Source of the DNA: a bacterium
Lineage (GTDB): Bacteria > KSB1 > UBA2214
Assembly: GCA_029560815.1 (NCBI GenBank)
Contig: JAKQKF010000046.1
Location: 1 to 64,000 of the forward strand
DNA length: 64,000 bases
Direction of reading: 5' to 3'
Made by a program: the position numbers and the translations under genes. The notes under the pieces were generated by a model. The model worked only from the letters and a program-made list of their open reading frames with translations, did not search any database and was not told the DNA's origin. Shown piece after piece: positions 28,654 to 45,292 of the stretch (the first letter of the stretch is position 1; every line of letters begins with the position of its first letter).

Positions 28654-28668
28654 TGGCATGCTATTTGA
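28654..28668 (+). promoter_or_regulatory. Sigma-54-like promoter element with non-consensus -12
   Basis: TGGCATG-CTAT-TTGA matches TGGCACG-N4-TTGC at the -24 box and spacing, but the -12 reads TTGA rather than TTGC. It would drive the degenerate receiver gene and HydCBA set 1. Confidence 0.4.
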
Positions 28669-28707: not shown

Positions 28708-29082
28708 ATGAATTGTCTCATCGTCGCAAATCCACACAAGAGCATTACGCAGGAGCTGGACCACTTTCTCCGCACCAATGCAATCGCCACATTTATGGTC
28801 GAGGACGCCGTCAAGGCCCTCGAACAGGTGCAGCGCCAGCATTTCGACCTCATCGTCCTTGACGCCCGGACCCATGGTCTGAAAATCGACCAAGCCATCC
28901 GGCTCCTCAAGGGGTGTGATCCCTCGATGCGCATTATCGTGCGGACAGAGGAGAATACGCGCAGCCTCGAGGGCAAGGTCCGCCGGGAACAAGTTTTTTA
29001 TTACCATGTGGATTCACTCGGCATGCAAGATCTGCAACTGGCCGTCACTGCGGCGCTGGGCATCGATACTCTCAAACACTAA
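28708..29082 (+). CDS. Degenerate receiver-domain protein
   Basis: 124 residues with the beta/alpha pattern of a CheY-like receiver and a preserved acceptor (Asp52 in LIVLDARTHG). The N-terminal acidic pair that binds Mg is replaced (LIVANPHKS). The Thr and Lys switch residues are also unclear. It may bind partners without phosphorylation. No good ribosome site directly before the ATG (AAAGGA is 21 bases away). It precedes the hydrogenase gamma-subunit gene by 31 bases. Confidence 0.7.
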   Translation: MNCLIVANPHKSITQELDHFLRTNAIATFMVEDAVKALEQVQRQHFDLIVLDARTHGLKIDQAIRLLKGCDPSMRIIVRTEENTRSLEGKVRREQVFYYHVDSLGMQDLQLAVTAALGIDTLKH

Positions 29083-29113
29083 ATCAACAAAAGTCATATC
29101 GCAAGAGGACAGC

Positions 29114-29578
29114 ATGGAAATTCAAGAGGTCTACGCAAAGTATCCCCAAAATGATCCCTCGATCCTCATTCCGATCCTCCAGGATATTCAGGAGGTAAGC
29201 GGCTATCTCTCCGAGGACGATCTGGAGCACGTCGCCGAACACACCAGGCTGCCAGTCAGCCGTGTTTATGGGGTGGCGACCTTTTACAACCAGTTCCGTC
29301 TGCGGCCGCTGGGCAAGCACGTCATTCGCGTCTGCCGCGGCACGGCCTGCCATGTCAAGGGATCATTTGATATTCTGACCACACTCGAAAATGAACTGGG
29401 TATCAAGGCCGGTCAGACCAGCAAAGACCTCCAGTTTTCAATCGAAACTGTTGCCTGCATCGGCGCCTGCAGCATTGCCCCGGTGATCACCATCGATGAC
29501 GAATTTCACGGCGGACTGACGGTCAAGGCTGTGCAAAAGTTGATTGCTTCAATGAAAAAGACTACTAATGAAGAATGA
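29114..29578 (+). CDS. hydC: NuoE-like [2Fe-2S] subunit of [FeFe]-hydrogenase (HydC), set 1
   Basis: 154 residues. Thioredoxin-like [2Fe-2S] fold with four ligand cysteines in CRGTACH and CIGACSIAP, plus the family signature VYGVATFYNQF. It is the NuoE/HydC subunit that passes electrons between the flavin-bearing subunit and the hydrogenase catalytic subunit. AGAGGA lies 5 bases before the ATG. It overlaps or abuts the HydB gene, so coupled translation is likely. Confidence 0.93.
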   Translation: MEIQEVYAKYPQNDPSILIPILQDIQEVSGYLSEDDLEHVAEHTRLPVSRVYGVATFYNQFRLRPLGKHVIRVCRGTACHVKGSFDILTTLENELGIKAGQTSKDLQFSIETVACIGACSIAPVITIDDEFHGGLTVKAVQKLIASMKKTTNEE

Positions 29579-29585
29579 GGCTGGT

Positions 29586-31583
29586 ATGAATTCATATGCG
29601 CAGATATTTGCCAACTGCTGGCACACCACTGAAAAACCTTGCGTCCATTACATAGATTGCATCAACGAAGGACAAAAGTGCCACCAGTCCGCAGAAAGCA
29701 AGAAACAGCTTGACGCCTTTAAATCCGAAATCCTGCTGCAGAACCACAAGGAACCGGTGATCCTCATTGGCATGGGGACCTGCGGCCTCGCCAACGGCGC
29801 CAACCGGGTGCATGCGGCGATCCTGAGTGAACTGGAGAGGCTGAACCTCGAGATCAAGGTCGTGCCTACCGGATGCGTTGGCTACTGCTCCAAAGAGGTG
29901 ATCGTCGACATTAAAATCCCGGGCCGTGCCCGACTCTGTTACTGCAAGGTCAAACCGGAAGATGTCCCCCTGCTCCTGCAAAAAACCCTGGTTGAGAACG
30001 AGGTGGTTGAGGAGAAACTGCTCGGCATCTATGAATCGGCCAACGGCAAGACCGGCTGGAAAGAGCTGCCCTTCCTCAATCAGGTGCCCTTTTTCGCCAA
30101 ACAGAAAAAGCTGGTGCTCGAGAACTGCGGTGTCATTGATCCCGAGAGCATCGACCAGTATCTTGCCCGCGGTGGCTACAGGGGCCTCTCCCGCGCTATC
30201 AGTAAAATGACCCCAGCCGAGGTGGTCAAGGAGATCCTCAAATCGGGTCTGCGCGGCCGTGGCGGCGGCGGTTTTCCGACCGGGAAAAAATGGGAATTCG
30301 CCCTCAATCAGCCCGCTGAACAGAAATATATCGTCTGCAACGCAGACGAGGGCGATCCGGGCGCTTTCATGGACCGTGCCGTGATGGAGAGCGATCCTCA
30401 CCGTGTCATCGAAGGCATGATCATCGGCGCCTATGCCATCGGAGCCAGCGAAGGCTACATCTACTGCCGTGCAGAGTATCCCCTCGCCATCAAGCGGCTG
30501 GAAAAGACCATCGCCGACGCGAAAGCCTATGGCCTGCTCGGACAGAACATCCTCGGCAGCGGCTTTAATCTGAACCTCAAGATCAAAAAAGGCGCCGGTG
30601 CATTTGTCTGCGGCGAAGAAACCGCTCTCCTGCACTCCATCGAAGGCAAGCGCGGTATGCCGCGGCCCCGTCCGCCTTTCCCGGCGGTCTCGGGCCTTTT
30701 CGGCAAACCGACGGTCATCAACAATGTCGAAACCTTCGCCAATGTGCCAAACATCATGCGCGATGGCGCCGACAAGTACGCCGCCATCGGCACCGAGGGC
30801 TCCAAGGGGACCAAGATCTTTGCCCTCTCCGGCAAGATCACCAACACCGGGCTGGTGGAAGTGCCGATGGGCGTGACCCTCCGTGAAGTGGTCTATGATA
30901 TCGGCGCCGGCTGCCCGGATGGTAAAAAATTCAAGGCCGTTCAGATCGGCGGCCCCTCCGGCGGCGCTCTGCCGGAACAGGTCATCGATACCCAGATAGA
31001 TTATGAAAACCTCAAAAAGGTCGGCGCCATGATGGGCTCGGGCGGCCTGGTGGTCATGGATGAAACCACCTGTATGGTTGACGTCGCCAAGTATTTTATG
31101 ACCTTCATCCAGTCCGAATCCTGCGGCAAGTGCATCCCCTGCCGTGAAGGCACCAAGCGGCTGCTGGAGATCCTCGAACGGCTGACCCAGAGCTACCGCA
31201 GCGAAAAGTCTCCGGACGAGGCTTTGCTGCGCTTTCAGGGCATGGTCTACCTGGAGCGCCTCTCAGAGGTGATCCGGGATACCTCCCTCTGCGGGTTGGG
31301 ACAGACTGCGGCCAACCCGGTCATGAGTACCTTGCGCTATTTCCGCGATGAATACGAAGCTCATCTCTACGATCGCAAGTGCCCGGCCGGCAGCTGCCGC
31401 GAGCTGCTCACCTACCATATCGACACCGACAAATGCACCGGCTGCACGGTCTGTGCGCGCAAATGTCCCCAGAACGCCATCCTGGGCGAGAAGGGTAAAG
31501 CCCATTATATCATCGACGAAAAGTGCATCCGCTGTGATCAGTGCCGCGCCAACTGCAAATTCGATGCGATCTTTGTAGAGTAA
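29586..31583 (+). CDS. hydB: NuoF-like flavin subunit of [FeFe]-hydrogenase (HydB), set 1
   Basis: 665 residues. The ATG preceded by GAGG is chosen over an in-frame ATG 18 bases upstream. N-terminal thioredoxin-like [2Fe-2S] domain (MGTCGLA, TGCVGYC), the NuoF core with FMN/NAD motif GRGGGGFPTGKKWEFA and NADEGDPGAF, the [4Fe-4S] motif ESCGKCIPCREGT, and a C-terminal 2x[4Fe-4S] ferredoxin (CTGCTVCARKC, CIRCDQCRANC). It oxidises or reduces NAD(P) and, in bifurcating enzymes, ferredoxin. Complete HydB architecture. Confidence 0.95.
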   Translation: MNSYAQIFANCWHTTEKPCVHYIDCINEGQKCHQSAESKKQLDAFKSEILLQNHKEPVILIGMGTCGLANGANRVHAAILSELERLNLEIKVVPTGCVGYCSKEVIVDIKIPGRARLCYCKVKPEDVPLLLQKTLVENEVVEEKLLGIYESANGKTGWKELPFLNQVPFFAKQKKLVLENCGVIDPESIDQYLARGGYRGLSRAISKMTPAEVVKEILKSGLRGRGGGGFPTGKKWEFALNQPAEQKYIVCNADEGDPGAFMDRAVMESDPHRVIEGMIIGAYAIGASEGYIYCRAEYPLAIKRLEKTIADAKAYGLLGQNILGSGFNLNLKIKKGAGAFVCGEETALLHSIEGKRGMPRPRPPFPAVSGLFGKPTVINNVETFANVPNIMRDGADKYAAIGTEGSKGTKIFALSGKITNTGLVEVPMGVTLREVVYDIGAGCPDGKKFKAVQIGGPSGGALPEQVIDTQIDYENLKKVGAMMGSGGLVVMDETTCMVDVAKYFMTFIQSESCGKCIPCREGTKRLLEILERLTQSYRSEKSPDEALLRFQGMVYLERLSEVIRDTSLCGLGQTAANPVMSTLRYFRDEYEAHLYDRKCPAGSCRELLTYHIDTDKCTGCTVCARKCPQNAILGEKGKAHYIIDEKCIRCDQCRANCKFDAIFVE

Positions 31584-31599
31584 AACCAAGAGGACGATC

Positions 31600-33306
31600 A
31601 TGAAGGTAACGATTAATAATAAAGAGTGCTGGGCTAATCCGGGCGAAACCATCCTCACTGTCGCACAGCGCGAGGGCATCCAGATTCCCACCCTCTGCTA
31701 TCTCAAGGGTTTTAGCCCCACCGGCTCATGCCGGGTTTGCGTGGTCGAGGTCGAGGGACAGCGCAATCTGATTCCCGCTTGCGCCTACCCGGTAACCGAG
31801 GGTATGGTGGTTCTGACCAATTCACCCCGTGTGCGGCGTTCCCGCAAGACCATCGTCGAGCTGCTTATCGCCAACCATCCCCAGGACTGCCTCACCTGCG
31901 TGCGCAATGGCAACTGCGAGCTGCAGGATCTGGCGGCGCAGTACGGCGTTCGCGATGTCCGCTATGCCGGTGAGATTCGCGGCGGCAAGATCGACGTGGC
32001 CAGCCCTTCGATCGAACGCGACCCTGAAAAATGCATCCTCTGCGGCCGCTGCGTGCGCGTTTGCCATGAGGTCCAGAATGTGGGCGCCATCGATTTTGTC
32101 CGCCGCGGCTTCAAGACTGCAGTCGCTCCGGCCATGGACGGCAGCCTCAATGCCATCGCCTGCGTCTTCTGCGGCCAGTGCATCACGGTCTGCCCGGTTG
32201 GCGCACTGCGCGAAAAGAGCAACGAAAAAATCGCCTGGGAGGCGATCAATAATCCCAAAAAGCATGTCGTCGCCCAGATCGCACCGGCCGTACGCGTCGC
32301 CCTCGGCGAGGAGTTCGGCATGGAACCGGGCAGCGTGGTCACTGGCAAGATTGTCGCCGCCCTGCGCCGGCTCGGGGTGGACCGGGTATTCGATACCAAC
32401 TTTGGCGCCGACCTGACCATCATCGAAGAGGCCTCCGAACTGCTGCATCGGGTCAATAACGGCGGCAAGCTGCCGCTGCTGACCTCCTGCAGTCCGGGCT
32501 GGGTCAAGTATATTGAACATTTTTATCCTGATCTGCTCCCGCATGTCTCCTCCTGCAAGTCGCCGCACGAGATGGAGGGGGCGCTGATCAAATCCTACTA
32601 CGCCGAAAAGACCGGCATTCCTGCCAGGGACATCTATGTCATCTCGATCATGCCCTGTATCGCCAAAAAGTTCGAGGCCCAGCGCCCGGAACTGAAAGAG
32701 GAATTCAGCGATGTCGATGCGGTGCTCACTACACGCGAGCTGGCGCGCATGATCAAGAACGCCGGCATCGATTTCACCAAGCTCGCTGACGAACATTTCG
32801 ATGATCCGATGGGCGAGTCGACTGGTGCCGCGGTCATTTTCGGCGCCGCCGGCGGGGTCATGGAAGCTGCTCTGCGCACCGCCCACTTTTTCCTCACCGG
32901 CAAGGAGATGGATAATGTCGAGTTCACGCCGGTGCGTGGTCTGCAGGGAGTAAAGGAGGGCGAGGTCACCATCGCCAACCTGACCATCAAGGTAGCCGCC
33001 GTCAGCGGACTGAAGAATATCGGCACCATCCTTGACAAGATCCGCTCCGGCGAGAACACCTATCACTTCATCGAGGTCATGGCCTGCCCGAACGGCTGCA
33101 TCAATGGCGGCGGCCAGCCCATCAACAGCGACCCGGACCGGGTGCGCAAGCGCATGGAGGCTATCTATGCCATCGATCGCACCTTGCCCAAACGCGCTTC
33201 ACACCAGAATGAAGCGGTGATGCGCCTTTATAAGGAATTCCTCGGCGAGCCCAACGGCCACAAGGCCCATGAACTGCTCCACACCCACTATGTGGAACGC
33301 GCCTAA
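31600..33306 (+). CDS. hydA: Catalytic subunit of NAD-linked [FeFe]-hydrogenase (HydA), set 1
   Basis: 568 residues: N-terminal [2Fe-2S] (LCYLKGFSPTGSCRVC), His/Cys [4Fe-4S] (HPQDCLTCVRNGNC), two [4Fe-4S] (CILCGRCVRVC, CVFCGQCITVC), then the H-cluster domain with L1 TSCSPGW, L2 MPCIAKKFE and L3 EVMACPNGCINGGGQP, and the small-subunit-like tail HKAHELLHTHY. These mark an H2-producing or H2-oxidising enzyme working with HydB and HydC. Maturases HydE, HydF and HydG are not in this window. AAGAGGA gives the ribosome site. Confidence 0.96.
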   Translation: MKVTINNKECWANPGETILTVAQREGIQIPTLCYLKGFSPTGSCRVCVVEVEGQRNLIPACAYPVTEGMVVLTNSPRVRRSRKTIVELLIANHPQDCLTCVRNGNCELQDLAAQYGVRDVRYAGEIRGGKIDVASPSIERDPEKCILCGRCVRVCHEVQNVGAIDFVRRGFKTAVAPAMDGSLNAIACVFCGQCITVCPVGALREKSNEKIAWEAINNPKKHVVAQIAPAVRVALGEEFGMEPGSVVTGKIVAALRRLGVDRVFDTNFGADLTIIEEASELLHRVNNGGKLPLLTSCSPGWVKYIEHFYPDLLPHVSSCKSPHEMEGALIKSYYAEKTGIPARDIYVISIMPCIAKKFEAQRPELKEEFSDVDAVLTTRELARMIKNAGIDFTKLADEHFDDPMGESTGAAVIFGAAGGVMEAALRTAHFFLTGKEMDNVEFTPVRGLQGVKEGEVTIANLTIKVAAVSGLKNIGTILDKIRSGENTYHFIEVMACPNGCINGGGQPINSDPDRVRKRMEAIYAIDRTLPKRASHQNEAVMRLYKEFLGEPNGHKAHELLHTHYVERA

Positions 33307-33330
33307 AGAGCCGCCGGAAAGGATGGCTGT

Positions 33331-35382
33331 ATGTCCGTCATATGGACCATAGAGGAACGTTGTAAAAGCTGCTATTCCTGCATCCGCGAGTGCCCCGCCA
33401 AAGCCATCATGGTCGTCAAAGGCCAGGCGAAGGTAGTGGAGGAGCTTTGTCTGGGCTGCGGACATTGCGTCACCGTCTGCACCCAGGGGGCCAAAGCGGT
33501 GAAGAGCGGGGTGGAGGCGGTCGAGCGCTTTCTCAAGAGCGGCCATCCTGTCGTCGCCATGATCGCTCCCTCTTTTCCGGCCGGCCTGCCGGATCTGGAG
33601 GGGGAACAGATTGCCGGGGCCCTGCACAAGGCGGGTTTTCAGCACGTGGTCGAGGTCGCCTACGGTGCGGATCTGATCAATCGTGAATACTACCGTCTGG
33701 TCAACTCCAAACAGACTCTGGACGGCCAGGAGATCGCCCTGCCGCTGATTACCAGCTCCTGTCCGGTTATCTATGAACTGGTCGAACGCACGGCTCCCGA
33801 ACTGGTGCCCAATCTGGCCCCGATAGTCAGCCCCATGGTCGCTATGGGAAGGGTTGTCCGCCGCTGCTATGGCGAAGAGGTCAGGACGGTCTTCATCGGT
33901 CCCTGCACGGCTAAAAAAGTCGAGATGCTCGACCCCGAGGTCTCGGACGCCGTGGACGAGGTGCTCACCTACGCAGAACTGAAGGAACTCTGGAAACGCC
34001 GCGGGATCGACCCCGCCCAGGCTGAGCCGGTCGCCTTTGATCCGCCTCATGCCTATCTCGGACGCCTCTATCCGGTCTCTGGAGGGCTGTTGCGCAGTGC
34101 CGGCCTGCCTTTCGATTTGATGAACAACGAAGTGGTCGTCACCGAAGGCAAACAGCGCGTGCTCAAATTGCTGGAAAGCCTGAAAAACCATCAGGTCAAG
34201 GCGAGTCTGGTTGATATCCTCTTCTGCGAGGGGTGTATCAGCGGGCCTTTCACGGACACCTCGCTGAATTTTTTCACCCGCAAACAAAAGATCGTCGCCT
34301 ATACCGATTCGCTGCGCATGCAGACCAACTATGCGGAATGGAAAAAGGCCATCCTCCAGTATCAGGATGTCGTGATCCACCGCTCCTTCAAACCCGCGGT
34401 CAAGGAAAAACCTGAACCCACGGAGGACGAGATCAGGCTGATCCTCAAGGAGATCAAGAAAGCCATCTCCTCCGACGAACTGAACTGCGGAGCCTGCGGC
34501 TATGAAACCTGCCGCGAATACGCCAAAGCGGTCTTTCAGGGCTTTGCTGAGGAAGAGATGTGTCTTCCTTACGTTATCGAGGAACTGCAGCACACCCAGA
34601 AAGAGCTGCAGGAATCTCTGGGCGATCTGGCAGACGCCCAGGAGCAGCTCATTCAGCATGAGAAACTGGCCTCGATCGGACAGCTGGCAGCCGGGGTTGC
34701 CCATGAGGTCAATAATCCCCTCGGTTCGATCATGCTTTACGCTCATCTCCTCCTGCAACAGTTGAAGGAGGACGACCAGAAGAGCAAGGATTTGCACTTC
34801 ATCATGGATGAAGCCAAGCGGTGTCAAAAGATCGTCGCCGGGCTGCTCAACTTCGCCCGTCAGGGCAAACTCAATTTGCGCAAGGTGACTCTGCAGGAGA
34901 TCCTCGACAAGCTCATCTCTGTCGCCTTCAATCAGCCGCTTTTTCAGATGACCCATGTTGTCGCCAGGCTTGACCCTGATCTTCCTCTCATCGAGGTCGA
35001 TTTTGATCAGATTTATCAGGTTTTTCTCAACCTGGCGGTCAACGCCGCTGAAGCCATGCCTGAGGGAGGCACACTGACCATCCAGGCCACAGTCACAGCC
35101 GACGGGCAGCAAATGCGCATCGCCTTTATCGATACCGGCGGGGGCATCCCGGTTGAAAATATGAACAAACTCTTCACACCTTTCTTCACCACCAAGCAGA
35201 TCGGCAAGGGGACCGGCCTCGGGCTGGCCATCGCCTATGGCATCATTAAAATGCATCGCGGCAGCATCACCGTCAAGAGTGAAGTCGATCATGGATCGAC
35301 ATTCACGGTGGAATTGCCGGTTCAGAATGCAGTCCATGCCGCTGCTTTCGATTTCAAAGCTGTGCAGGAGAGCATGCAATGA
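33331..35382 (+). CDS. Sensory [FeFe]-hydrogenase fused to histidine kinase
   Basis: 683 residues. Two [4Fe-4S] clusters (Cys11/14/17/21 and 40/43/46/50), an H-cluster-like domain (L1 TSSCP about 141-145, L2 GPCTAKKVE near 190, L3 CEGCISGP near 299), a further Fe-S motif C386-x2-C389-x4-C394-x16-C411, a coiled linker, then HisKA (His in GVAHEVNNPLGS) and HATPase_c (DTGGGIPVEN, GTGLGLAIAYG). L3 lacks the GGG(Q)P tail and L1 has Ser before Cys, as in group C/D sensory hydrogenases. It likely converts H2 or redox state into phosphorylation of the CheY protein whose gene overlaps its stop by 4 bases. Confidence 0.93.
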   Translation: MSVIWTIEERCKSCYSCIRECPAKAIMVVKGQAKVVEELCLGCGHCVTVCTQGAKAVKSGVEAVERFLKSGHPVVAMIAPSFPAGLPDLEGEQIAGALHKAGFQHVVEVAYGADLINREYYRLVNSKQTLDGQEIALPLITSSCPVIYELVERTAPELVPNLAPIVSPMVAMGRVVRRCYGEEVRTVFIGPCTAKKVEMLDPEVSDAVDEVLTYAELKELWKRRGIDPAQAEPVAFDPPHAYLGRLYPVSGGLLRSAGLPFDLMNNEVVVTEGKQRVLKLLESLKNHQVKASLVDILFCEGCISGPFTDTSLNFFTRKQKIVAYTDSLRMQTNYAEWKKAILQYQDVVIHRSFKPAVKEKPEPTEDEIRLILKEIKKAISSDELNCGACGYETCREYAKAVFQGFAEEEMCLPYVIEELQHTQKELQESLGDLADAQEQLIQHEKLASIGQLAAGVAHEVNNPLGSIMLYAHLLLQQLKEDDQKSKDLHFIMDEAKRCQKIVAGLLNFARQGKLNLRKVTLQEILDKLISVAFNQPLFQMTHVVARLDPDLPLIEVDFDQIYQVFLNLAVNAAEAMPEGGTLTIQATVTADGQQMRIAFIDTGGGIPVENMNKLFTPFFTTKQIGKGTGLGLAIAYGIIKMHRGSITVKSEVDHGSTFTVELPVQNAVHAAAFDFKAVQESMQ

Positions 35383-35768
35383 GTAAAAAGATTTTACTGA
35401 TCGACGATGACATCGATATCGTCGAACTGAACCGCGCCCTTCTCACCATGGCCGGCTATGAGGTTGTGGCCGCTTTCAGCGGAGCCGAAGGACTGGAAAA
35501 GGTGATCGCGGAACGGCCGGATCTGGTCATTCTGGACGTAATGATGAGCACGGTCGGTGAAGGATTCGAGGTGGCACGGCAGATTCGCAAGCATGAGGCG
35601 ATCCGCCACACCCCCATCCTGATGCTGACCGGTGTAAACCGGGAACATCCCTTCAATCTGCGCATTGGCCCCGATGTCGAGTGGAATCCTGTGGACAGTT
35701 TTATCGAAAAACCTGTCCAGAAGGAACTTCTTCTCGCCAAGGTACACGCCATGCTGCAGGATAAATAA
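35379..35768 (+). CDS. CheY-like single-domain response regulator
   Basis: 129 residues, receiver only: acidic pair DDD at 9-11, acceptor Asp53 (LVILDVMM), Lys near FIEKPVQK. The ATG overlaps the stop of the hydrogenase-kinase gene (ATGA), indicating coupled expression and probable cognate partnership. It has no output domain, so it must act through protein contacts or a phosphorelay. Confidence 0.93.
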   Translation: MSKKILLIDDDIDIVELNRALLTMAGYEVVAAFSGAEGLEKVIAERPDLVILDVMMSTVGEGFEVARQIRKHEAIRHTPILMLTGVNREHPFNLRIGPDVEWNPVDSFIEKPVQKELLLAKVHAMLQDK

Positions 35769-35795
35769 AACCTGACAAAGGAAGATACCAGCGCC

Positions 35796-36209
35796 ATGAA
35801 GAAAAAAATCATGATGGTCGATGACGACTATGATCTGCTTCAGATCTACGTGCCGGTCCTCGAAAAGGCCGGTTTTGAAGTGGCCACAGCCAACACAGCC
35901 GCCGAAGGACTTGAACTGTTTAAAACCTATCTCCCCGATCTGGTGATGGTCGATCTGGCCATGGAGCACTTTGACTCGGGCTTTGTCCTCTGTCACCGCA
36001 TCAAGAGCCTGCCCGAGGGCGTCAGTGTTCCGGTGGTGATCATGACCGCTGCGAGCCACGAGACCGGCATCCGCTTCTCCACCCAGACAGAGGAGGAGCG
36101 TAAATGGATCCAGGCCGACGAATACCTGGATAAACCGATTCCACCGCGTGAACTGCTCGCGTTTATCAAGGAACGTTTTTTTGATACTCCTGAAGCTCCC
36201 CGGCACTGA
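35796..36209 (+). CDS. CheY-like single-domain response regulator
   Basis: 137 residues, receiver only (DDDYD at 9-13, Asp53 in MVDLAMEH, Lys in YLDKPIPPRE). It lies 27 bases after the first CheY gene and diverges well from it, so it is not a recent duplicate. It probably belongs to the same phosphorelay as the sensory hydrogenase-kinase and the downstream hybrid kinase. Confidence 0.93.
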   Translation: MKKKIMMVDDDYDLLQIYVPVLEKAGFEVATANTAAEGLELFKTYLPDLVMVDLAMEHFDSGFVLCHRIKSLPEGVSVPVVIMTAASHETGIRFSTQTEEERKWIQADEYLDKPIPPRELLAFIKERFFDTPEAPRH

Positions 36210-36227
36210 GCGTACGTATACTGCAGG

Positions 36228-36251
36228 CTCACCGGTCGCACGACCGGTGAG
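36228..36251. promoter_or_regulatory. Intercistronic hairpin
   Basis: CTCACCGGTCG / CGACCGGTGAG is an 11-bp perfect inverted repeat with a 2-base centre. No T-run follows, so it may be a processing or stability element or an operator rather than a terminator. Confidence 0.5.
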
Positions 36252-36299
36252 AGCGCTGTCTCTTCCGCAGCACATTTACACCACTCAAATCGGGCAGCT

Positions 36300-37778: not shown

Positions 37779-37904
37779 AAGGAGACCTGCCGATTTATTT
37801 TCTTTCTTCTTTTCAAAAATTTATGTATTTTCCTTTCTGAACGGTTCGATCGGAGCCGGTTCCGCCTGCTCCATACTGGTTAACCCTAACGGTGAATTCA
37901 AAGT

Positions 37905-39101
37905 ATGACCATGATGCTTGATCAGGCCATCGCTGGTGCTGAAGCATATCGTGTCCATCTGACTTTTCCATTCATCGCTATTTCAGGCAGCAATGGCAAG
38001 ACGACGACCAGGTCCATGCTCGCCCATATCCTGCGCCAGGCCGGCCGCGTTTACGAGTTTTCCTGCAACTCCGATACCGCGGCAGAGATCGGCCGGGAAC
38101 TCACCACCATCCACCCGCCGCTGGACTGGGCGGTCCTGAAAATCGGCGCCGCCATCCCGGGGGAAAGCCGCACCGCCGCCCACCTGATCAAACCCCATAT
38201 GGCGATCATCACCAATGTCGGTGAAGCTCACCTCTCTCACTATGACAAGATCGATGATATCGCCGCTGCCAAGCTTGAACTGCTCACCGCCCTTGACCCG
38301 GACGGCATCGCCATCCTCAATCGCGACAATGAATTCACGCGTATGATGGGGCTGAATCTGGCCGGCAGAGTGCTCTATTACGGTCTGAGTTCGGTATCGG
38401 ACTATTACGCCGATTCCATTCGACATCTCGGGCCGGAAGGCACCAGCTTCACCATCCACAGGCACGGTACTGAAGAAGTGCACCTCAGGATGGCTCTCTA
38501 TTCCCTCGGCGATGTCTACAATGCCCTCGCCGCCTACGCCGCCGCTTCGGAACTCGGTGTGCCACGCGAAACCATTAAAAATGCCCTTGAAAACGGTTTC
38601 ACCCTTCCCGACGGACGCGGCAGATTGCACGCCTTCCCTGGCTTTTACATCCTCGACGACACCCATGACGCTACTCCCCAGTCATTCTACAAATCAACAA
38701 AATCATTGATCAACTTTCGCCGCCATGCCAGACGGCTTATCTTCGTCATGGGGAATTTGACTGAGATCGGGGGACAAACCCGGGTGATGCATACCATGAT
38801 GGGCCATTATATCGCCGGCATGCCAATCGATATCGCCGTCCTGGTCGGAGATTACGCCGGCGCCGCTGCATCGGCCATCACCACCGCCACCAGCCGCCGC
38901 AAACGGGTCATAACCTGTTCCACCGTCGAGGAGGCCGGCAACTGGCTTAAAAAAAACCTCAGAACCGGCGATGTCGTCCTCGTGGAAGGAGGGGAGACCA
39001 TCGATATGGGCGCCATCGTGATCGACCTGGTGCAGTTTGGCAAGGATACCGGCGGAAGTTTCACTGCCGTGAACTCATTACCCCACACGCCAAGAGAGTA
39101 A
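37905..39101 (+). CDS. MurF-like Mur ligase lacking the N-terminal substrate domain
   Basis: 398 residues. ATP motif GSNGKTTTRSML, central-domain NVGEAHLSHYD and AAKLELLTAL, and a C-terminal domain motif DDTHDATPQS (MurF: DDxYNANPxS). It begins directly with the ATPase domain, so the UDP-sugar-binding N-terminal domain of MurF is missing. Free-standing Mur-ligase relatives attach amino acids or ammonia to cofactors (CfbE for F430, MurT in GatD/MurT). Its place between signalling genes of a hydrogenase island is unexplained. No strong ribosome site. Confidence 0.85.
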   Translation: MTMMLDQAIAGAEAYRVHLTFPFIAISGSNGKTTTRSMLAHILRQAGRVYEFSCNSDTAAEIGRELTTIHPPLDWAVLKIGAAIPGESRTAAHLIKPHMAIITNVGEAHLSHYDKIDDIAAAKLELLTALDPDGIAILNRDNEFTRMMGLNLAGRVLYYGLSSVSDYYADSIRHLGPEGTSFTIHRHGTEEVHLRMALYSLGDVYNALAAYAAASELGVPRETIKNALENGFTLPDGRGRLHAFPGFYILDDTHDATPQSFYKSTKSLINFRRHARRLIFVMGNLTEIGGQTRVMHTMMGHYIAGMPIDIAVLVGDYAGAAASAITTATSRRKRVITCSTVEEAGNWLKKNLRTGDVVLVEGGETIDMGAIVIDLVQFGKDTGGSFTAVNSLPHTPRE

Positions 39102-39110
39102 AGACAGGCC

Positions 39111-39455
39111 ATGGAATTTATAAAAATACTTGAAGAAATCCCTCTAAATTGCCTTACAATGGCTAATTCCAAAGAACGGGATGTATCTTCTGCATGCATT
39201 TCCGACATCCTCAGCGATGTGATGGCCAGAGTGCCGCGCGATGCCATCTGGATCACCAATCAGGCCCATGAGAATGTCATCGCGATCGCTTTTTTCAAGG
39301 AGCTGACCGCGGTCATCTTCACCAACGGCGCCGTGCCCGCCATGGACGCGATCGACAAAGCCAACATCAAAAAGATCGCCCTCTATAGCTGCGACCAGAA
39401 TGCCTTTGATATTGCGGGCCGGCTCTATGCCCTGGGTCTACGCGGGAGCAATTGA
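39111..39455 (+). CDS. DRTGG-domain-like protein
   Basis: 114 residues. The alpha/beta pattern (SACISDILSDVMARVPRDAIWITNQAHENVIAIAFFKELTAVIFTNG) matches small DRTGG-type proteins that neighbour [FeFe]-hydrogenase genes in anaerobes, together with PHP and HATPase genes as here. Biochemical role unknown; a ligand-binding or regulatory role is presumed. It stops one base before the PHP gene start. Confidence 0.75.
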   Translation: MEFIKILEEIPLNCLTMANSKERDVSSACISDILSDVMARVPRDAIWITNQAHENVIAIAFFKELTAVIFTNGAVPAMDAIDKANIKKIALYSCDQNAFDIAGRLYALGLRGSN

Positions 39456-40247
39456 ATGCTGCGCTGGTATGTTGGTGACCTCCATATTCATACCGTGCTG
39501 TCACCCTGCTCTGAATTGACCATGGGGCCGCAGGATATTGTCCGGACCGCCATCCACCAGGGGCTGGATTTTATTGCGATTACTGATCACAATTCGGCGG
39601 AGAATGTCCCCGCCGTCCAGCGCGCCGCTCAGGGAACCCGGCTCCAGGTCTTTCCGGGCATCGAGGTATCCACACGGGAGGAGATCCACATGATCACACT
39701 CTTCCCCGCACTGGAACAGCTCTTTGATTTTCAGGAGTGGCTCTACAGTCAGCTGCAGGAGGGGGAAAACGACCCATCCTTGTGGGGACCGCAGCTTGTC
39801 GTCGATGAGCGGGAAAATATCGTCGCCGAAAATATGCGCTTGCTAGGTCTGCCCATACATGCGCCCTATGATCAGGTTGTGCGTGAGACCGTCGCCAGGG
39901 AGGGTATCATCTATCCCGTTCATATTGACCGGCGCGCCAACAGTATGGTGCGAACTCTGGGCTTCCTGCCCGCCGATCTGCCCTTCAGGATCGTCGAACT
40001 CTCCCGCCGCGCCAACCTGGCCGACGCGGTGGAACGTTACAGCGGCAGCGGGATGCAGCTGATCACTGCTTCTGATGCCCATGACGTCGAACAGATCGGC
40101 ACTGCACGAAGCTGGTTCAGGATGTCAGAACCCTCTTTCCCCGAGCTTCTGCTGGCTTGCCGGGGGGAGAACGGCCGTCAGATCGCTGTCCTTGAACCGG
40201 AAGAGGCCGGCCGCAGCGGCGCCTCATGTGCGGCAGCTGTGCACTGA
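39456..40247 (+). CDS. PHP-domain phosphoesterase
   Basis: 263 residues with the four PHP motifs: DLHIHTVLSPCSE, TDHNSAEN, PVHIDR and SDAHDVEQIG, the metal ligands of a trinuclear phosphoesterase site. PHP proteins of this kind are common neighbours of hydrogenase and DRTGG genes. The substrate is unknown; nucleotide or phosphorylated cofactor hydrolysis is possible. Start codon directly follows the DRTGG stop. The C-terminus is short and Cys-poor. Confidence 0.9.
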   Translation: MLRWYVGDLHIHTVLSPCSELTMGPQDIVRTAIHQGLDFIAITDHNSAENVPAVQRAAQGTRLQVFPGIEVSTREEIHMITLFPALEQLFDFQEWLYSQLQEGENDPSLWGPQLVVDERENIVAENMRLLGLPIHAPYDQVVRETVAREGIIYPVHIDRRANSMVRTLGFLPADLPFRIVELSRRANLADAVERYSGSGMQLITASDAHDVEQIGTARSWFRMSEPSFPELLLACRGENGRQIAVLEPEEAGRSGASCAAAVH

Positions 40248-40268
40248 AACAGAGAATAAGGACAGCTT

Positions 40269-40817
40269 GTGCGCGAACTCTCCCTGCATATTCTGGATAT
40301 CGTCACCAACTCGATCGAGGCGAAGGCCAGCCGTGTTATCCTCTGGATAGAAGAGTCAGTAGAGAAAAATCAGTTTTCGATTACCATCCGTGATAACGGA
40401 CGCGGCATGAGCCAGGAGATGATCGATGCGGTCATTGATCCCTTTGTGACAACGCGGACCACCCGTCCTGTCGGCATGGGGCTCCCTCTTCTCAGGCAGG
40501 CGGCGACCAGCTGCGGCGGGACGCTCAGGATCAAATCCAGACTCGGCAAAGGCACCACGCTGACCGCCTCTTTTCACCACAACAGCCTGAACCGCTCTCC
40601 ACTTGGCGGAATTGCCGAGACCGTGGTCAATCTGATCATCGGCGCACCGGATGTCCATTTTGTCTACGGCCACCGGACAGACACGGGCTGTTTTGCTTTT
40701 GATTCCTACTGGATCTATGCCCGTATGGCCGAGCTGGATTGTTCTCAGTACATGCTGGTCGAACCGGCGCAAAAATGGATTGAGGAGAAGCTGCTGTCGA
40801 TTGGCTCGACCGCCTGA
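40269..40817 (+). CDS. HATPase (anti-sigma/kinase-like ATP-binding) protein
   Basis: 182 residues starting with GTG, AAGGA 6 bases upstream. It holds a compact GHKL ATPase: N-box HILDIVTNSIEAKAS, G1 RDNGRGMS, G2 VGMGLPLLRQAA and GKGTTLTASF. There is no phospho-acceptor domain. The same type of stand-alone ATPase lies between PHP and NuoE genes in other [FeFe]-hydrogenase clusters. It may act as a Ser kinase, anti-sigma factor or relay component. Confidence 0.88.
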   Translation: MRELSLHILDIVTNSIEAKASRVILWIEESVEKNQFSITIRDNGRGMSQEMIDAVIDPFVTTRTTRPVGMGLPLLRQAATSCGGTLRIKSRLGKGTTLTASFHHNSLNRSPLGGIAETVVNLIIGAPDVHFVYGHRTDTGCFAFDSYWIYARMAELDCSQYMLVEPAQKWIEEKLLSIGSTA

Positions 40818-40885
40818 TCCTGCCCCCCGCGCCGGCCCGATATTGAATTTTTGCGGTATATTTTACTTAATCAACAGCTCCACAT

Positions 40886-40912
40886 CGGCGGAATCATCTC
40901 CACGCTCCGCCG
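40886..40912 (+). promoter_or_regulatory. Small hairpin ahead of the HndB-like gene
   Basis: CGGCGGA (40886-40892) and TCCGCCG (40906-40912) form a 7-bp stem 17 bases before the Shine-Dalgarno. It could modulate translation. The preceding 40843-40870 is AT-rich (TTGAAT, TATATT), so an internal promoter is possible. Confidence 0.35.
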
Positions 40913-40941
40913 GTGAAACACAACTGCAGGAGGAATACCGA

Positions 40942-41307
40942 GTGAAAAGTCTGTCAGATCTTCGCGCCATCAAGGAAAAGGCCAAAAAAGAGATGGCGGC
41001 CCGTGAACAATCGGCCAAATACCGCATCGTCATCGCCATGGGGACCTGCGGGATTGCCGCCGGCGCACGCGCGGTCATGTCCGCTATACTTGATGAGATA
41101 AACAAGAGAAGTGTCACCGACGTCGTCGTCACCCAGACCGGCTGCCTTGGTTTCTGCGATCAGGAACCCCTCGTTCAGGTGGTGCAGACCGACAAGGGGG
41201 TGACCACCACTTACGGCAAGATCAATCCGGAAATTGCCCGCAAAATAATCGATGAGCATGTCCTGGCCGATCGTATCGTCTCCAGCCATGTCTTTTCGCA
41301 TGAATAA
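40942..41307 (+). CDS. Free thioredoxin-like [2Fe-2S] subunit (HndB-like), set 2
   Basis: 121 residues from a GTG preceded by GGAGGA (7 bases). Ligand cysteines in MGTCGIAAGA and QTGCLGFCDQEP match the N-terminal [2Fe-2S] domain of HydB set 1. In Desulfovibrio Hnd hydrogenase a comparable separate subunit (HndB) is present. Here it probably supplies the cluster that the N-terminal domain of the set 2 HydB has lost. Confidence 0.9.
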   Translation: MKSLSDLRAIKEKAKKEMAAREQSAKYRIVIAMGTCGIAAGARAVMSAILDEINKRSVTDVVVTQTGCLGFCDQEPLVQVVQTDKGVTTTYGKINPEIARKIIDEHVLADRIVSSHVFSHE

Positions 41308-41371
41308 TGCCGGCAGCTCCATTCCGGGTTGAGCTAATGTACGTAACTTGCCGAGTTTTATGGAGGAACCT

Positions 41372-41848
41372 ATGACGGATTACACTGCAGTAGATAAAAT
41401 CATCACTTCCTATGCGGCGACCAAAACGCCGCTCATCTACGTCCTCAAGGATGTGCAGAAGGAGTATGGTCACCTCTCCGAGGAACTTCTCACCCGCATC
41501 GCCAAAAAGATCGATATCCCCCTCAGCGAAATCTATGGCGTCGCCACTTTTTACTCTCTTTTCACCACCAAGCCCAAGGGCAAACACATCGTGCGCTGCT
41601 GCAACAATGCCCCCTGCTATGTCAAGGATTCCAAGGAGGTTCTCGCCCAGATCAAGAGCTATCTCGGCATTGAAACCGGCGAGACCACCCCGGACGGACT
41701 CTTCACCCTCGAGTTTACCAGCTGCCTCGGGCTCTGCGCTGTCGCCCCGGTGATGATGATCGACAGTGAGGTTTATGGCAATCTCACCCCCGAGAAAGCG
41801 ATCGCGATATTGAAAGACTACAAAGTGAAAGGATCCTCCAATGCATAG
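41372..41848 (+). CDS. hydC: NuoE-like [2Fe-2S] subunit (HydC/HndA-like), set 2
   Basis: 158 residues. Cysteines in CNNAPC and CLGLCAVAP, signature IYGVATFYSLF. The ATG is chosen because GGAGG lies 5 bases upstream. It overlaps the next gene by 8 bases. The first ligand motif (CCNNAPC) has an extra Cys compared with set 1. Confidence 0.93.
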   Translation: MTDYTAVDKIITSYAATKTPLIYVLKDVQKEYGHLSEELLTRIAKKIDIPLSEIYGVATFYSLFTTKPKGKHIVRCCNNAPCYVKDSKEVLAQIKSYLGIETGETTPDGLFTLEFTSCLGLCAVAPVMMIDSEVYGNLTPEKAIAILKDYKVKGSSNA

Positions 41849-43469
41849 AATCCATATTCTGGTCGCAATGGATGCCCATACCATATCCCAGGGTGCCCGC
41901 TCGGTCAAAGACGCCCTGGTCAAGGAAGTAGCCCTGGCCGGACTGGCCGATGATGTGCGCGTGGTCGAAACGGGCAGCCTCGGCATCTACGACAAGGGCG
42001 TTGTGCTGGTTATTTTTCCTGATGCCGTCTACTACGTCGGCGTCAAGATGGAGGATGTCTCCGAGATCATCGCCGAGCATCTGCTCAAGGGCCGCATTGT
42101 CGAACGCCTGCACTATCTCGATATTCCGTCGGCTGAGGGCGAGATGGGGGAAAAGTCGGCGCGCATTTGTAAACAGGAGCGCGTGGTGCTCAGAAACGCC
42201 GGCGTGATCGATCCTGAAAGCATCGAGGAATACATCGCCCATGACGGCTACGAGGCCCTCGGCAAGGCCCTCACGGAGATGACCCCGGAAGCGGTCATGG
42301 AGGAGGTGAAAAAGTCGGGGATGCAGGGCCGCGGCGGCGCCTTCTTCCCGACCGGCCTCAAATGGAGCTTTGCGGCCAAGGAAAAATCGGAAGAAAAATA
42401 TATCATTTGCAACGCCGATGAGGGCGAGCCCGGCACCTTCAAGGACCGCCTCATCCTTGAAGGCGATCCCCACGCCGTCATCGAAGGGATGATCCTGGCC
42501 GGCTATGCCGTCGGGGCCCATCAGGGCTACGTCTACATCCGCGGAGAATATCACATGTCCATCGCCCGGGTCAAGCGCGCCATCGAACAGGCCCGCGCCC
42601 ACGGCCTGCTCGGCAAGAGCATTTTCGGCACCCCCTTCTCCTTCGATCTCGAGATCCGTGAAGGGGCCGGGGCCTATATCTGCGGCGAGGAAACCGCTTT
42701 GATCGAATCGATCGAAGGCAAGCGCGGGGAGCCGCGCAACAAGCCGCCCTTCCCGCCCTCCGTAGGCCTCTGGGGAAAGCCGACGATTGTCAACAATGTC
42801 GAGACCCTCGCCAATGTGCCCCAGATCATCCGCAAGGGGGCGGAGTGGTACAAGGGCATCGGCACGGCCAAGAGTCCCGGCACCAAGGTCTTTACGATGG
42901 TCGGCAATATTAACAATCCCGGCCTCATCGAGGTGCCGATGGGCATCACCCTCCGCGAAATCATCTATGACATCGGCCACGGTATCCCGAATGGCAAAGG
43001 CTTCAAGCTTGCCCAGCTGGGCGGCACCACCGGCGGCATCCTGACCAGTGAGCATCTCGATCTGCCTCTGAGCGTCGAGTCCCTGCGCGAGATCGGCGCG
43101 GGCATGGGCTCCGGCGCCCTGCTCGTGGTCGACGACAGCCAGTGCGTTGTCGGTTTGGTCAAAAACTTTGTCGAATTTTTTGTGCATGAGTCGTGCGGCA
43201 TCTGCACCCTCTGCCGGGAGGGCAACGGCCGCCTGCTCGAGATCCTCGAGCGCCTGACCTCCGGCCATGGCACAGCCAGGGATCTCGAACTGATGGAGGA
43301 GCTCGCCAATACCATGACCAAGGGCGCTTTCTGCGGCCTGGGTCAGGCGGCTCCGATTCCCATCATCGGCTGCCTGCGTTACTTCAGAGAGGAGTTCGAA
43401 CAGCATCTGGAAAAGAAATGCAAGTCCGGCAAGTGCACCTTTGAGGCCGCCGATACGGCCGCCGCTTGA
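41841..43469 (+). CDS. hydB: NuoF-like flavin subunit (HydB/HndC-like), set 2
   Basis: 542 residues. The N-terminal thioredoxin-like domain keeps the fold (ILVAMDAHTISQGARSVKDAL, VVETGSLGIYDKG) but all [2Fe-2S] cysteines are gone (MGTC to MDAH, TGCVGYC to TGSLGIY). The NuoF core follows: GRGGAFFPTGLKW (Phe where Gly is usual), NADEGEPGTF, and ESCGICTLCREG. It ends after that [4Fe-4S] motif with a short tail (KKCKSGKCTFEAADTAAA), lacking the C-terminal 2x[4Fe-4S] domain of set 1. AAAGGA ribosome site. Confidence 0.94.
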   Translation: MHRIHILVAMDAHTISQGARSVKDALVKEVALAGLADDVRVVETGSLGIYDKGVVLVIFPDAVYYVGVKMEDVSEIIAEHLLKGRIVERLHYLDIPSAEGEMGEKSARICKQERVVLRNAGVIDPESIEEYIAHDGYEALGKALTEMTPEAVMEEVKKSGMQGRGGAFFPTGLKWSFAAKEKSEEKYIICNADEGEPGTFKDRLILEGDPHAVIEGMILAGYAVGAHQGYVYIRGEYHMSIARVKRAIEQARAHGLLGKSIFGTPFSFDLEIREGAGAYICGEETALIESIEGKRGEPRNKPPFPPSVGLWGKPTIVNNVETLANVPQIIRKGAEWYKGIGTAKSPGTKVFTMVGNINNPGLIEVPMGITLREIIYDIGHGIPNGKGFKLAQLGGTTGGILTSEHLDLPLSVESLREIGAGMGSGALLVVDDSQCVVGLVKNFVEFFVHESCGICTLCREGNGRLLEILERLTSGHGTARDLELMEELANTMTKGAFCGLGQAAPIPIIGCLRYFREEFEQHLEKKCKSGKCTFEAADTAAA

Positions 43470-43520
43470 TCTTCTCCACCGGAAATAGTTACACCCATTT
43501 ATTATTTTAGGAGGATTCCC

Positions 43521-45251
43521 TTGGATACTGTCAATTTGACCATAGATGGACGCAAGGTTACCGTGCCGGCAGATGCCACGGTTCTTGAAGCCGCCGAGAA
43601 GGCTCTGATCAACATCCCCCGCCTCTGCTATCACCCCGATCTGCCCCCGATCTCCGCATGCCGCCTCTGCGTCGTCGAGATCAAGGGTGATCGTCTCCTG
43701 CGCACCGCCTGTTCCTGGAAGGTCGCAGAGGGGATGGAGGTGATCACCAACTCGAAGGTGGTACGCGAATCGCGCAAGATTGCCATGGAACTGCTGCTCT
43801 CCCGCCATCCCATGCGCTGCACCGAATGCGTCCGCAACGGCTCCTGTGAACTGCGCGCCGTTGCCGACCAGCTCGGCATCCGCGAAATCTCTTTCGAATA
43901 CCGCGAACGCAAGGGCGAGCTGGATACCTCCAGTCCCTCCGTCGTCCGCGACCCCTCGAAATGCATCCTCTGCCGCCGCTGCGTCCAGACCTGCACCATG
44001 GTCCAGAGCGTCAGCGCCCTCGGCATGGAGAGCCGCGGATATGATGTCTGGGTTGACACCCCGTTCGGCAAGGGGCTGAGCGAGGTCGCCTGCGTCGCCT
44101 GCGGCCAGTGCATCGACCGCTGCCCGGTTGGGGCCCTGTACGAGAACAGCCATATCCAGCGGGTCTGGGACGCCCTCGACAATCCCGACCTGCATGTTGT
44201 CGTCCAGACCGCGCCGGCCGTCCGCGTCGCCATCGGCGAAGAATTCGGCATGCCCGCCGGCTCGCTGGTCACCGACAAGCTGGTCGCCGGCCTGCGTCGT
44301 CTTGGCTTCGACAAGGTCTTCGACACCGACTTTACTGCCGATCTGACCATCATGGAGGAGGGCTATGAGCTGCTCAACCGGCTGAAAAACGGCGGCACCC
44401 TGCCCCTGTTGACCTCCTGCAGCCCGGGATGGATCAATTTCATTGAACATTTCTATCCCGAACTCCTGCCGCACGTCTCTTCCTGCAAATCCCCGCAGCA
44501 GATGTTCGGCGCCCTCGCCAAGACCTACTATGCGCAAAAAATCGGCGCCGATCCGAAAAACATCTTTTCGGTCTCGGTCATGCCCTGCACAGCGAAAAAG
44601 TACGAGAGCGACCGCGCCGAGATGAGCAGCAGCGGCTTCAAGGATGTCGATGCCGTTCTCACCACCAGAGAAGCAGCCACAATGATGAAGCAGATCGGCA
44701 TCCATCTGCCCGACCTGCCGGATGAAGAGTATGATGCGCCGCTGGGAATTTCGACCGGCGCCGCGGTCATCTTCGGCAACACCGGTGGCGTCATGGAGGC
44801 CGCCCTGCGCACGGTTTACGAGGTGGTCACCGGCAAGACTCTGGAAGAGGTCGAAATCAAGGCTGTCCGCGGCCTGGAAGGCGTCCGCGAAGCGGAGGTT
44901 CAGGTCGGCGATCTCACCGTTCGGGCTGCCGTCGCCAACGGCCTCGCCAACGCCCGCCAGCTCATGAAAAAGATCGTTGCCGGCGAGGCCCACTATCACT
45001 TTATCGAAATTATGGCTTGCCCCGGCGGCTGCATCGGCGGCGGTGGTCAGCCGGTTCCCACCTCGATGGAGATCAGGAAAAAACGCGCTGCAGCCATCTA
45101 TCGTGCCGATCAGGCCAAGACCATCCGCAAATCGCACGAGAATCCGGCCGTGCAGCAGCTCTATAAGGAATTCCTGGGCGAACCCAACAGCCACAAGGCC
45201 CATGAACTCCTTCATACCCATTATATCAAAAAAACGGTGTATCAGGAATAG
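43521..45251 (+). CDS. hydA: Catalytic subunit of NAD-linked [FeFe]-hydrogenase (HydA/HndD-like), set 2
   Basis: 576 residues, TTG start with TAGGAGGA 6 bases upstream. N-terminal [2Fe-2S] (LCYHPDLPPISACRLC), His/Cys [4Fe-4S] (HPMRCTECVRNGSC), two [4Fe-4S] (CILCRRCVQTC, CVACGQCIDRC), H-cluster L1 TSCSPGW, L2 MPCTAKKYE, L3 EIMACPGGCIGGGGQP, and tail HKAHELLHTHY. All H-cluster motifs are intact. It is clearly paralogous to set 1 but well diverged, so the two sets are not a recent duplication. Confidence 0.96.
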   Translation: MDTVNLTIDGRKVTVPADATVLEAAEKALINIPRLCYHPDLPPISACRLCVVEIKGDRLLRTACSWKVAEGMEVITNSKVVRESRKIAMELLLSRHPMRCTECVRNGSCELRAVADQLGIREISFEYRERKGELDTSSPSVVRDPSKCILCRRCVQTCTMVQSVSALGMESRGYDVWVDTPFGKGLSEVACVACGQCIDRCPVGALYENSHIQRVWDALDNPDLHVVVQTAPAVRVAIGEEFGMPAGSLVTDKLVAGLRRLGFDKVFDTDFTADLTIMEEGYELLNRLKNGGTLPLLTSCSPGWINFIEHFYPELLPHVSSCKSPQQMFGALAKTYYAQKIGADPKNIFSVSVMPCTAKKYESDRAEMSSSGFKDVDAVLTTREAATMMKQIGIHLPDLPDEEYDAPLGISTGAAVIFGNTGGVMEAALRTVYEVVTGKTLEEVEIKAVRGLEGVREAEVQVGDLTVRAAVANGLANARQLMKKIVAGEAHYHFIEIMACPGGCIGGGGQPVPTSMEIRKKRAAAIYRADQAKTIRKSHENPAVQQLYKEFLGEPNSHKAHELLHTHYIKKTVYQE

Positions 45252-45260
45252 CACCAGTGC

Positions 45261-45292
45261 ACTCCGCCCGGCGCTCTTGCTCCGGGCGGAGT
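45261..45292 (+). promoter_or_regulatory. Perfect 11-bp intercistronic hairpin
   Basis: ACTCCGCCCGG / CCGGGCGGAGT with a 10-base loop lies between hydA set 2 and buk1. There is no T-run; it ends 4 bases before the buk1 Shine-Dalgarno. Likely an mRNA stability or translation-control element. Confidence 0.6.

What the first reader, a model, noticed from the sequence alone, without database searches (positions are those of the whole stretch)
28708..45251. 16.5-kb hydrogen-sensing and hydrogen-metabolism island with two HydABC sets around a signalling core
Two diverged NAD-linked [FeFe]-hydrogenase gene sets flank a kinase-linked sensory hydrogenase, two CheY proteins, a receiver-PAS kinase, a MurF-like ligase, and DRTGG, PHP and HATPase genes, nearly all in one direction with tight spacing. 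DRTGG/PHP/HATPase genes near hydrogenases are known from anaerobes; this combination with a Mur ligase and a full phosphorelay is new to me. It could be one integrated H2-responsive electron-disposal system.
Basis: partly seen in the sequence, partly recalled or inferred. Interest (0 to 1): 0.85.

Follow-up and report, generated by a model that had tools for sequence, protein, structure and literature searches.

The report
Two-hydrogenase operon with built-in hydrogen sensor
An uncultured bacterium, probably a fermenter, carries in what looks like one conserved operon two different hydrogen-making enzymes, a protein that probably senses hydrogen, its control genes, and a relative of a cell-wall enzyme that seems to have been turned to another job.

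Summary
The genes are real, on one strand, in the order reported. The lineage is KSB1/Calditrichota-like. In 9 of 9 relatives with an unbroken contig, both hydrogenase sets flank the same signalling core. Four points sharpen the finding. (1) The HydABC sets differ in kind: set 1 meets the published sequence criteria for electron bifurcation, set 2 those for the non-bifurcating NADH-only type. (2) The kinase-fused hydrogenase keeps the H-cluster cysteines but lost the proton-transfer cysteine, as in putative sensors; such kinase-linked sensors beside bifurcating HydABC are published (BfuT, sub-type V). (3) Between an NtrC-type activator gene and the cluster lie a conserved palindrome (28522-28540) and a sigma-54-like site (28654-28668), so one regulated operon is likely. 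(4) The MurF-like protein is not MurF: it lacks the UDP-substrate domain, and a glutamate found in 36 of 36 MurF-type rows is lysine in 37 of 37 relatives. It is under purifying selection and follows set 2 rather than the sensor, but is optional (10 of 82 genomes). H2 sensing, phosphotransfer, co-transcription and MurL's role are inferred. New variant of a known kind.

The parts
27002..28366 (+). NtrC-type sigma-54 activator (REC, AAA+, Fis HTH)
   Evidence: Pfam; adjacent to the cluster in several relatives
28522..28540 (.). palindrome, GTGTGGA-N5-TCCACAC with 2 mismatches; putative activator site
   Evidence: only place in the window with <=2 mismatches
28654..28668 (+). sigma-54-like -24/-12 site TGGCATGCTATTTGA (non-canonical -12 half)
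   Evidence: only + strand match of the pattern in the window
28708..29082 (+). pseudo-receiver (no acidic pair, no conserved Lys)
29114..29578 (+). HydC1 (NuoE-like)
29568..31583 (+). HydB1 (NuoF-like), bifurcating-type
31600..33306 (+). HydA1, catalytic [FeFe] subunit
33331..35382 (+). HydHK: putative sensory [FeFe]-hydrogenase fused to histidine kinase
35379..35768 (+). CheY-like receiver RR1
35796..36209 (+). CheY-like receiver RR2
36300..37778 (+). REC-PAS-histidine kinase
37905..39101 (+). MurL: MurF-derived protein without the UDP-substrate domain, Glu to Lys at 79
39111..39455 (+). DRTGG-domain protein
39456..40247 (+). PHP-domain protein
40269..40817 (+). HATPase-domain protein
40942..41307 (+). 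thioredoxin-like [2Fe-2S] protein (HydD-like)
41348..41848 (+). HydC2 (NuoE-like)
41841..43469 (+). HydB2 (NuoF-like), non-bifurcating type
43521..45251 (+). HydA2, catalytic [FeFe] subunit
45257..46387 (+). butyrate kinase, probable continuation of the cluster
46421..47329 (+). phosphate acyl (Ptb-like) transferase, possible continuation

Best explanation
One sigma-54-dependent operon for H2-responsive electron disposal. Shown by sequence: conserved gene order; HydABC1 of bifurcating type and HydABC2 of non-bifurcating NADH type; a sensor-type [FeFe]-hydrogenase fused to a histidine kinase; an NtrC-type activator gene with a conserved palindrome and a -24/-12-like site before the first gene. 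Inferred: H2 or redox state at the HydHK H-cluster sets its kinase activity, which acts on the NtrC-type activator and the CheY-like proteins, so that transcription follows H2. The cell then has two gears: NADH-only H2 release at very low H2, and NADH plus ferredoxin at higher H2. MurL is a MurF-derived, still selected protein that probably binds a nucleotide and does not make murein precursors; whether it is a regulator or a retooled ligase is open.
For: Order on one strand in 9 of 9 unbroken relatives. HydHK and HydB1 of this class occur in the same 13 of 82 genomes, all 13 with set 2. Bifurcating motif and C-terminal clusters in 11 of 11 set-1, the other motif and no such clusters in 13 of 13 set-2 relatives; window also fits the FMN and SLBB criteria. 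Sensor signature in 13 of 13 HydHK. Palindrome and promoter-like site in 10 of 10 NtrC-to-pseudo-receiver gaps examined; 10 of 14 genome-wide palindromes (<=1 mismatch, 22 genomes) stand before hydrogenase-cluster genes. HydHK kinase part is closest to AtoS and ZraS models, whose partners are NtrC-type regulators (recalled).
Against: The -12 half is TTTG[AT], not the canonical TTGC[AT]; the canonical consensus alone is not significant in the window (matched in 23% of shuffles). The palindrome was found in the sequences it was scored on. G018 has the cluster but no palindrome (<=2 mismatches in L050) and no NtrC gene beside it; G009 and G010 have the palindrome without an NtrC gene in the fetched stretch, G009 also without the promoter pattern. 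The palindrome at <=1 mismatch is absent from 11 of 22 genomes and its total (14) is only about twice the reversed control (6; places of the control not shown). Set 2 lives without set 1 in several genomes, so it can have its own control; gaps of 126 and 124 nt before MurL and the [2Fe-2S] gene could hold promoters. MurL is missing from most island genomes, and G034 has MurL without visible hydrogenase genes.
Confidence: 0.6

Rival explanations
1. A stable neighbourhood rather than one system: two independently regulated hydrogenase operons side by side, the signalling genes serving set 1 only.
For: Set-2 HydB occurs in 25 of 82 genomes, 12 of them without HydB1 of this class. In G022 and G017 the palindrome stands directly before PHP-HATPase-set 2. 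Gaps of 126 and 124 nt lie inside the cluster.
Against: Order and single strand are kept in 9 of 9 unbroken genomes of three families; the same palindrome precedes set-2-only operons, which points to common control rather than separate control.
Confidence: 0.25
2. MurL is a working ligase with a new substrate: it couples an amino acid or small acid to a cofactor or metabolite that the hydrogenase set 2 or its regulators need.
For: P-loop, His109, Lys123, Asn206, Arg238 and Asp252 are kept in nearly all of 37 MurL rows; the fold is a complete Mur middle plus C domain; purifying selection.
Against: The Glu that is kept in 36 of 36 MurF-type rows is Lys in 37 of 37; the substrate domain is gone; no substrate is suggested by the neighbours.
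Confidence: 0.35
3. HydHK does not sense H2 but another signal (cell redox state, CO or O2) through its H-cluster or its other Fe-S clusters.
For: Proton-transfer cysteine absent and several extra Fe-S motifs; in the passages I read, the sensory role of group C and D enzymes is called putative.
Against: H-cluster ligand cysteines kept in 13 of 13 orthologues; the gene or its paralogue lies beside H2 enzymes: with bifurcating-type HydB in 21 of 21 genomes that have it, allowing for two contig breaks, or with a 49-kDa-subunit membrane complex in 5 of 6 genomes looked at.
Confidence: 0.2

Closest known systems
BfuTABC sub-type V (Hydrogenedentota, Caldithrix abyssi); PMC11406978, section 7 part 1 and passages
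   Same: Bifurcating-type HydABC with a downstream [FeFe] sensor fused to a histidine kinase
   Different: No second, NADH-only HydABC, activator, receivers or Mur-like gene described in what I read; Caldithrix cluster is reported with Rex (PMC5317091, passages)
[quoted passage not shown] PMC7311640, section 17 and passages
   Same: Set 2 has the same diagnostic residues and no C-terminal clusters
   Different: Here it shares a conserved cluster with a bifurcating set and a sensor
Putative sensory hydrogenases Tm HydS and Tam HydS (groups C, D); PMC8163306, passages
   Same: Two N-terminal 4Fe-4S motifs, Cx2Cx4Cx16C motif, loss of the C299 equivalent
   Different: HydHK carries its own histidine kinase instead of PAS (Tm HydS) or nothing (Tam HydS)
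MurF
   Different: No UDP-substrate domain; Glu to Lys at 79; separate clade
Mur-like subunit of the plastid RNA polymerase (9epc_Q, 8r6s_Q)
   Different: Plant protein, not MurF-derived; its identity as PAP11 is recalled and from a search listing; an analogy only

Membership tests
Electron-bifurcating HydABC (set 1) | HydB residues A/E232, M234, F367, GGPSG (T. maritima numbering) | tested here: met
   Window DEGDPGAFMDR, GAGAF, GGPSG; first motif in 11 of 11 relatives; criteria
[quoted passage not shown]
Electron-bifurcating HydABC (set 1) | Needs NADH and reduced ferredoxin together | not testable with these tools
   enzyme assay
Non-bifurcating NADH-dependent HydABC (set 2) | T/S232, K/S/A234, Y367, no GGPSG | tested here: met
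   Window DEGEPGTFKDR, GAGAY, GGTTG; first motif in 13 of 13 relatives
Non-bifurcating NADH-dependent HydABC (set 2) | No C-terminal 4Fe-4S domain in HydB | tested here: met
Kinase-linked sensory [FeFe]-hydrogenase (group C, BfuT) | H-cluster domain fused to histidine kinase, C299 equivalent lost, Cx2Cx4Cx16C motif | tested here: met
   (13 of 13 for the Cys loss; the Cx2Cx4Cx16C motif read in the window protein only)
Kinase-linked sensory [FeFe]-hydrogenase (group C, BfuT) | HydDB class (C1 or C3) by its classifier | not tested
   classifier not on hand
MurF | PF01225 N-terminal domain | tested here: not met
   N-terminal domain absent in model alignment
MurF | Conserved Glu of the ATP-Mg site | tested here: not met
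   Lys in 37 of 37; Mg role of the MurC equivalent from PMC3060825 passages, equivalence partly recalled
MurF | NCBIfam murF cut-off (288.6 bits) | tested here: not met
   212.1 bits
NtrC-controlled sigma-54 operon | Activator with REC, AAA+ and Fis HTH domains | tested here: met
NtrC-controlled sigma-54 operon | Upstream palindrome and canonical -24/-12 promoter | tested here: inconclusive
   Palindrome and -24 half conserved; -12 half not canonical

The most novel reading that the evidence does not exclude
MurL is a cell-wall-ligase pseudoenzyme recruited as a nucleotide-dependent regulatory or assembly factor of hydrogen metabolism, in an operon that lets the cell switch between a bifurcating and an NADH-only hydrogenase according to the H2 it senses.
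Probability: 0.25. Interest if true: 0.8.

Novelty: new variant of a known kind. Interest (0 to 1): 0.6.

Why it matters
How fermenters tune H2 release to ambient H2, and how putative sensory [FeFe]-hydrogenases signal, are open. Here sensor, activator, a predicted binding site and both enzyme types lie together and give concrete targets: one palindrome, one kinase-activator pair, and two enzymes with opposite predictions for ferredoxin. The MurF-derived protein would be a new example of a cell-wall enzyme turned to another task.

Tried and rejected
Housekeeping MurF: rejected. MurL plus its sister group is separated from MurF-type rows with 100/100 support, and 40 of 40 relatives also or only hold matches of the MurF kind at lower identity.

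Ordinary sigma-70 promoters and terminators: 13 promoter-like sites against 8.3 (sd 3.3) in shuffles, 15 terminator-like against 17.8 (sd 4.3); uninformative.

I used none of them to place MurL, so the neighbourhood of sister group 2 (Calditrichota names) is unknown.

Defence system: PADLOC gave only weak PHP matches and none for MurL or the HATPase protein. DRTGG profile against the PDB: no match.

First tree: held 15 loci rows picked by a script; three outside rows (L058, L089, L133) fell on a very long branch and were probably wrong picks. I dropped them and rebuilt with a stricter filter, which kept 8 of 14 phylum loci. MurL alone has only 85/64 support there (90/76).

MurL tied to the sensor: rejected. 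In G004, G007, G024 and G029 it lies with set-2 genes while these genomes have no HydHK of this class. Counter-case to the set-2 link too: G034 has MurL on a 3.4-kb contig with a DUF3078 and a butyrate kinase gene but no hydrogenase gene, and no set-2 HydB at E 1e-200 in an 85% complete assembly.

Papers: searches listed nothing that I could see on a Mur ligase in a hydrogenase operon or on both hydrogenase kinds in one operon; this covers only the held open-licence library, mostly by titles and abstract starts.

Full report
WHAT IS THERE. Names attached to protein relatives of the Mur gene, where given, include candidate division KSB1 and Calditrichaeota, so the window is probably from that lineage. 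Its own assembly is not held; the nearest held genome, G001, shares 21% of sampled words.

CONSERVATION. Among the 82 genomes of the phylum, HydHK of this class (59-91% identity) occurs in 13, and HydB1 of this class (71-95%) in the same 13. The two share a contig in 11; in G014 and G010 they lie at contig ends. Eight further genomes have a HydB1-like protein of 59-61%, each with a HydHK paralogue a few kb away on the same contig. Set-2 HydB at E 1e-200 occurs in 25 of 82, including all 13. In 9 of the 13, HydHK and set 2 share a contig, and in all 9 the order on one strand is HydC1-HydB1-HydA1-HydHK-RR1-RR2-REC-PAS-kinase-(MurL)-DRTGG-PHP-HATPase-[2Fe-2S]-HydC2-HydB2-HydA2. G014's contig starts inside HydA1, and its NtrC-pseudo-receiver-HydC1-HydB1 part ends another contig; several 20-kb stretches end inside HydA2. 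In the other four (G001, G002, G003, G010) the island contig ends before set 2. Some genomes have one or two extra signalling genes before HydC1 (L045, L046, L048, L159). Butyrate kinase follows HydA2 in 5 of 8 loci with at least 1 kb read beyond it (present in L022, L023, L025, L026, L046; not found in L028, L029, L048), and a Ptb-like gene lies after it in three (L022, L025, L026).

TWO KINDS OF HYDROGENASE. Losey et al. (PMC7311640, section 17 read) name residues that separate bifurcating from NADH-only beta subunits. HydB1 has the bifurcating pattern (DEGDPGAFMDR, GAGAF, GGPSG, two C-terminal 4Fe-4S motifs); HydB2 has the other (DEGEPGTFKDR, GAGAY, GGTTG, none). The first motif and the C-terminal clusters sort the same way in 11 of 11 set-1 and 13 of 13 set-2 relatives; the other two criteria were read in the window only. 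HydB2 of the window also lacks the N-terminal cysteines of HydB1, while the separate gene at 40942-41307 carries a cysteine-bearing domain. The C-terminal domain is described as absent in non-bifurcating multimeric enzymes (PMC9499530, passages). Both catalytic subunits keep the H-cluster motifs and pass the NCBIfam group A6 model, which does not separate the kinds. Both kinds in one genome is published for Hydrogenedentota (PMC11406978, passages); I saw no report of both in one operon.

SENSOR. HydHK carries two N-terminal 4Fe-4S motifs, an H-cluster domain, a Cx2Cx4Cx16C motif (C386, C389, C394, C411) and HisKA+HATPase. In 13 of 13 relatives of its class the residue before the first ligand cysteine is Ser or Ala and MPC is GPC; in six paralogue rows it is Pro. 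Loss of that proton-transfer cysteine and the C-terminal motif are described for putative sensors (PMC8163306, passages). HydDB lists kinase-linked group C1 as putative (PMC5037454, passages); PMC11406978 puts BfuT in C3. A paralogue followed by REC, REC, REC-PAS-kinase and DRTGG (L055, L056, L057; without DRTGG in L052; with NtrC-type genes instead in L053, L054) lies on the same contig, about 5-7 kb or more from a 49-kDa-subunit gene, in 5 of 6 genomes looked at, with antiporter-like and NuoH-like subunits where scanned (L052, L053, L057) and hypF in L052. The cassette thus looks like a portable regulator of H2 enzymes.

CONTROL. In the 10 gaps between the NtrC-type gene and the pseudo-receiver that I scored (window and nine relatives), a palindrome GTGTGGA-N5-TCCACAC (11-14 of 14 positions) and a TGGCA-N5-TTTG[AT]-like site recur; the second lies 50-60 nt before the pseudo-receiver in nine and 134 nt in L049. 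The palindrome score was reached in 0-0.4% of 500 shuffles, the derived promoter motif in 0-3.8%, but both were drawn from these sequences. The independent canonical sigma-54 consensus was reached in 0-23% of shuffles, the window being the weakest. G014 is a further positive; G010 has both sites but no NtrC gene in the stretch; G009 has the palindrome only; G018 has neither. Genome-wide with at most one mismatch, 14 places lie in 11 of 22 genomes of the order: eight at the head of the cluster (G007's has set 2 only), two before PHP-HATPase-[2Fe-2S]-set 2 in G022 and G017 (no promoter pattern there), one inside island coding sequence, three away from these genes; the reversed control has six places, not listed.

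HOW IT MAY WORK. Inferred: sensor kinase to NtrC-type activator to sigma-54 promoter, controlling both hydrogenases. Thermodynamics give a reason for two gears: purified NADH-only HydAB produced 2.2-40.2 Pa H2 (PMC7311640 abstract), while a bifurcating enzyme is argued to work at higher H2 in Caldithrix, whose low-H2 enzyme is a [NiFe] one (PMC5317091, passages). Which gear runs may be set by H2 itself rather than by regulation. Butyrate kinase and Ptb would fit a fermentative ATP-forming path. For the HATPase and [2Fe-2S] genes, PMC9304861 (passages) notes hisK and hydD genes in a related operon that are not part of the holoenzyme. The roles of MurL, DRTGG, PHP, HATPase and the CheY-like proteins are unknown; a nucleotide-linked regulatory step is my guess for MurL.

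LIMITS. Relatives share ancestry, so counts are not independent events. The genomes are mostly fragmentary. No transcript, binding or enzyme data were available.

Noticed in passing
L052, L053, L054, L055, L056, L057: A HydHK paralogue with its own receivers, REC-PAS-kinase and often DRTGG (or NtrC-type genes) lies near a complex I-like/group 4 [NiFe]-like membrane module.
   Followed up: partly
proteins P0037-P0050: A sister group of MurL with Calditrichota names, also without the N-terminal domain, has different lost active-site residues (Asp252 to His/Tyr, Lys123 often lost). Its gene neighbours are unknown.
   Followed up: partly
window 28708-29082: A conserved pseudo-receiver stands as first gene of the cluster; 12 of 12 aligned copies lack the acidic pair.
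   Followed up: partly
L028 13543-17827, L027 436-1428: In one family MurL and set 2 come with a DUF3078 gene and, after HydA2, a radical SAM/BATS protein that may be HydG (name recalled).
   Followed up: no
L045 3957-5859, L046 15820-17763, L159: Some relatives carry an extra CheY plus REC-PAS-kinase pair between the pseudo-receiver and HydC1.
   Followed up: no
window 22535-26992: Transglutaminase-like, FGGY kinase and REC genes upstream also keep their place in some close relatives (L044, and L021 and L030 in part).
   Followed up: no
window 1346-9922: A 2858-residue ORF with SdrD_B repeats and a Por secretion tail, probably a giant surface protein.
   Followed up: no
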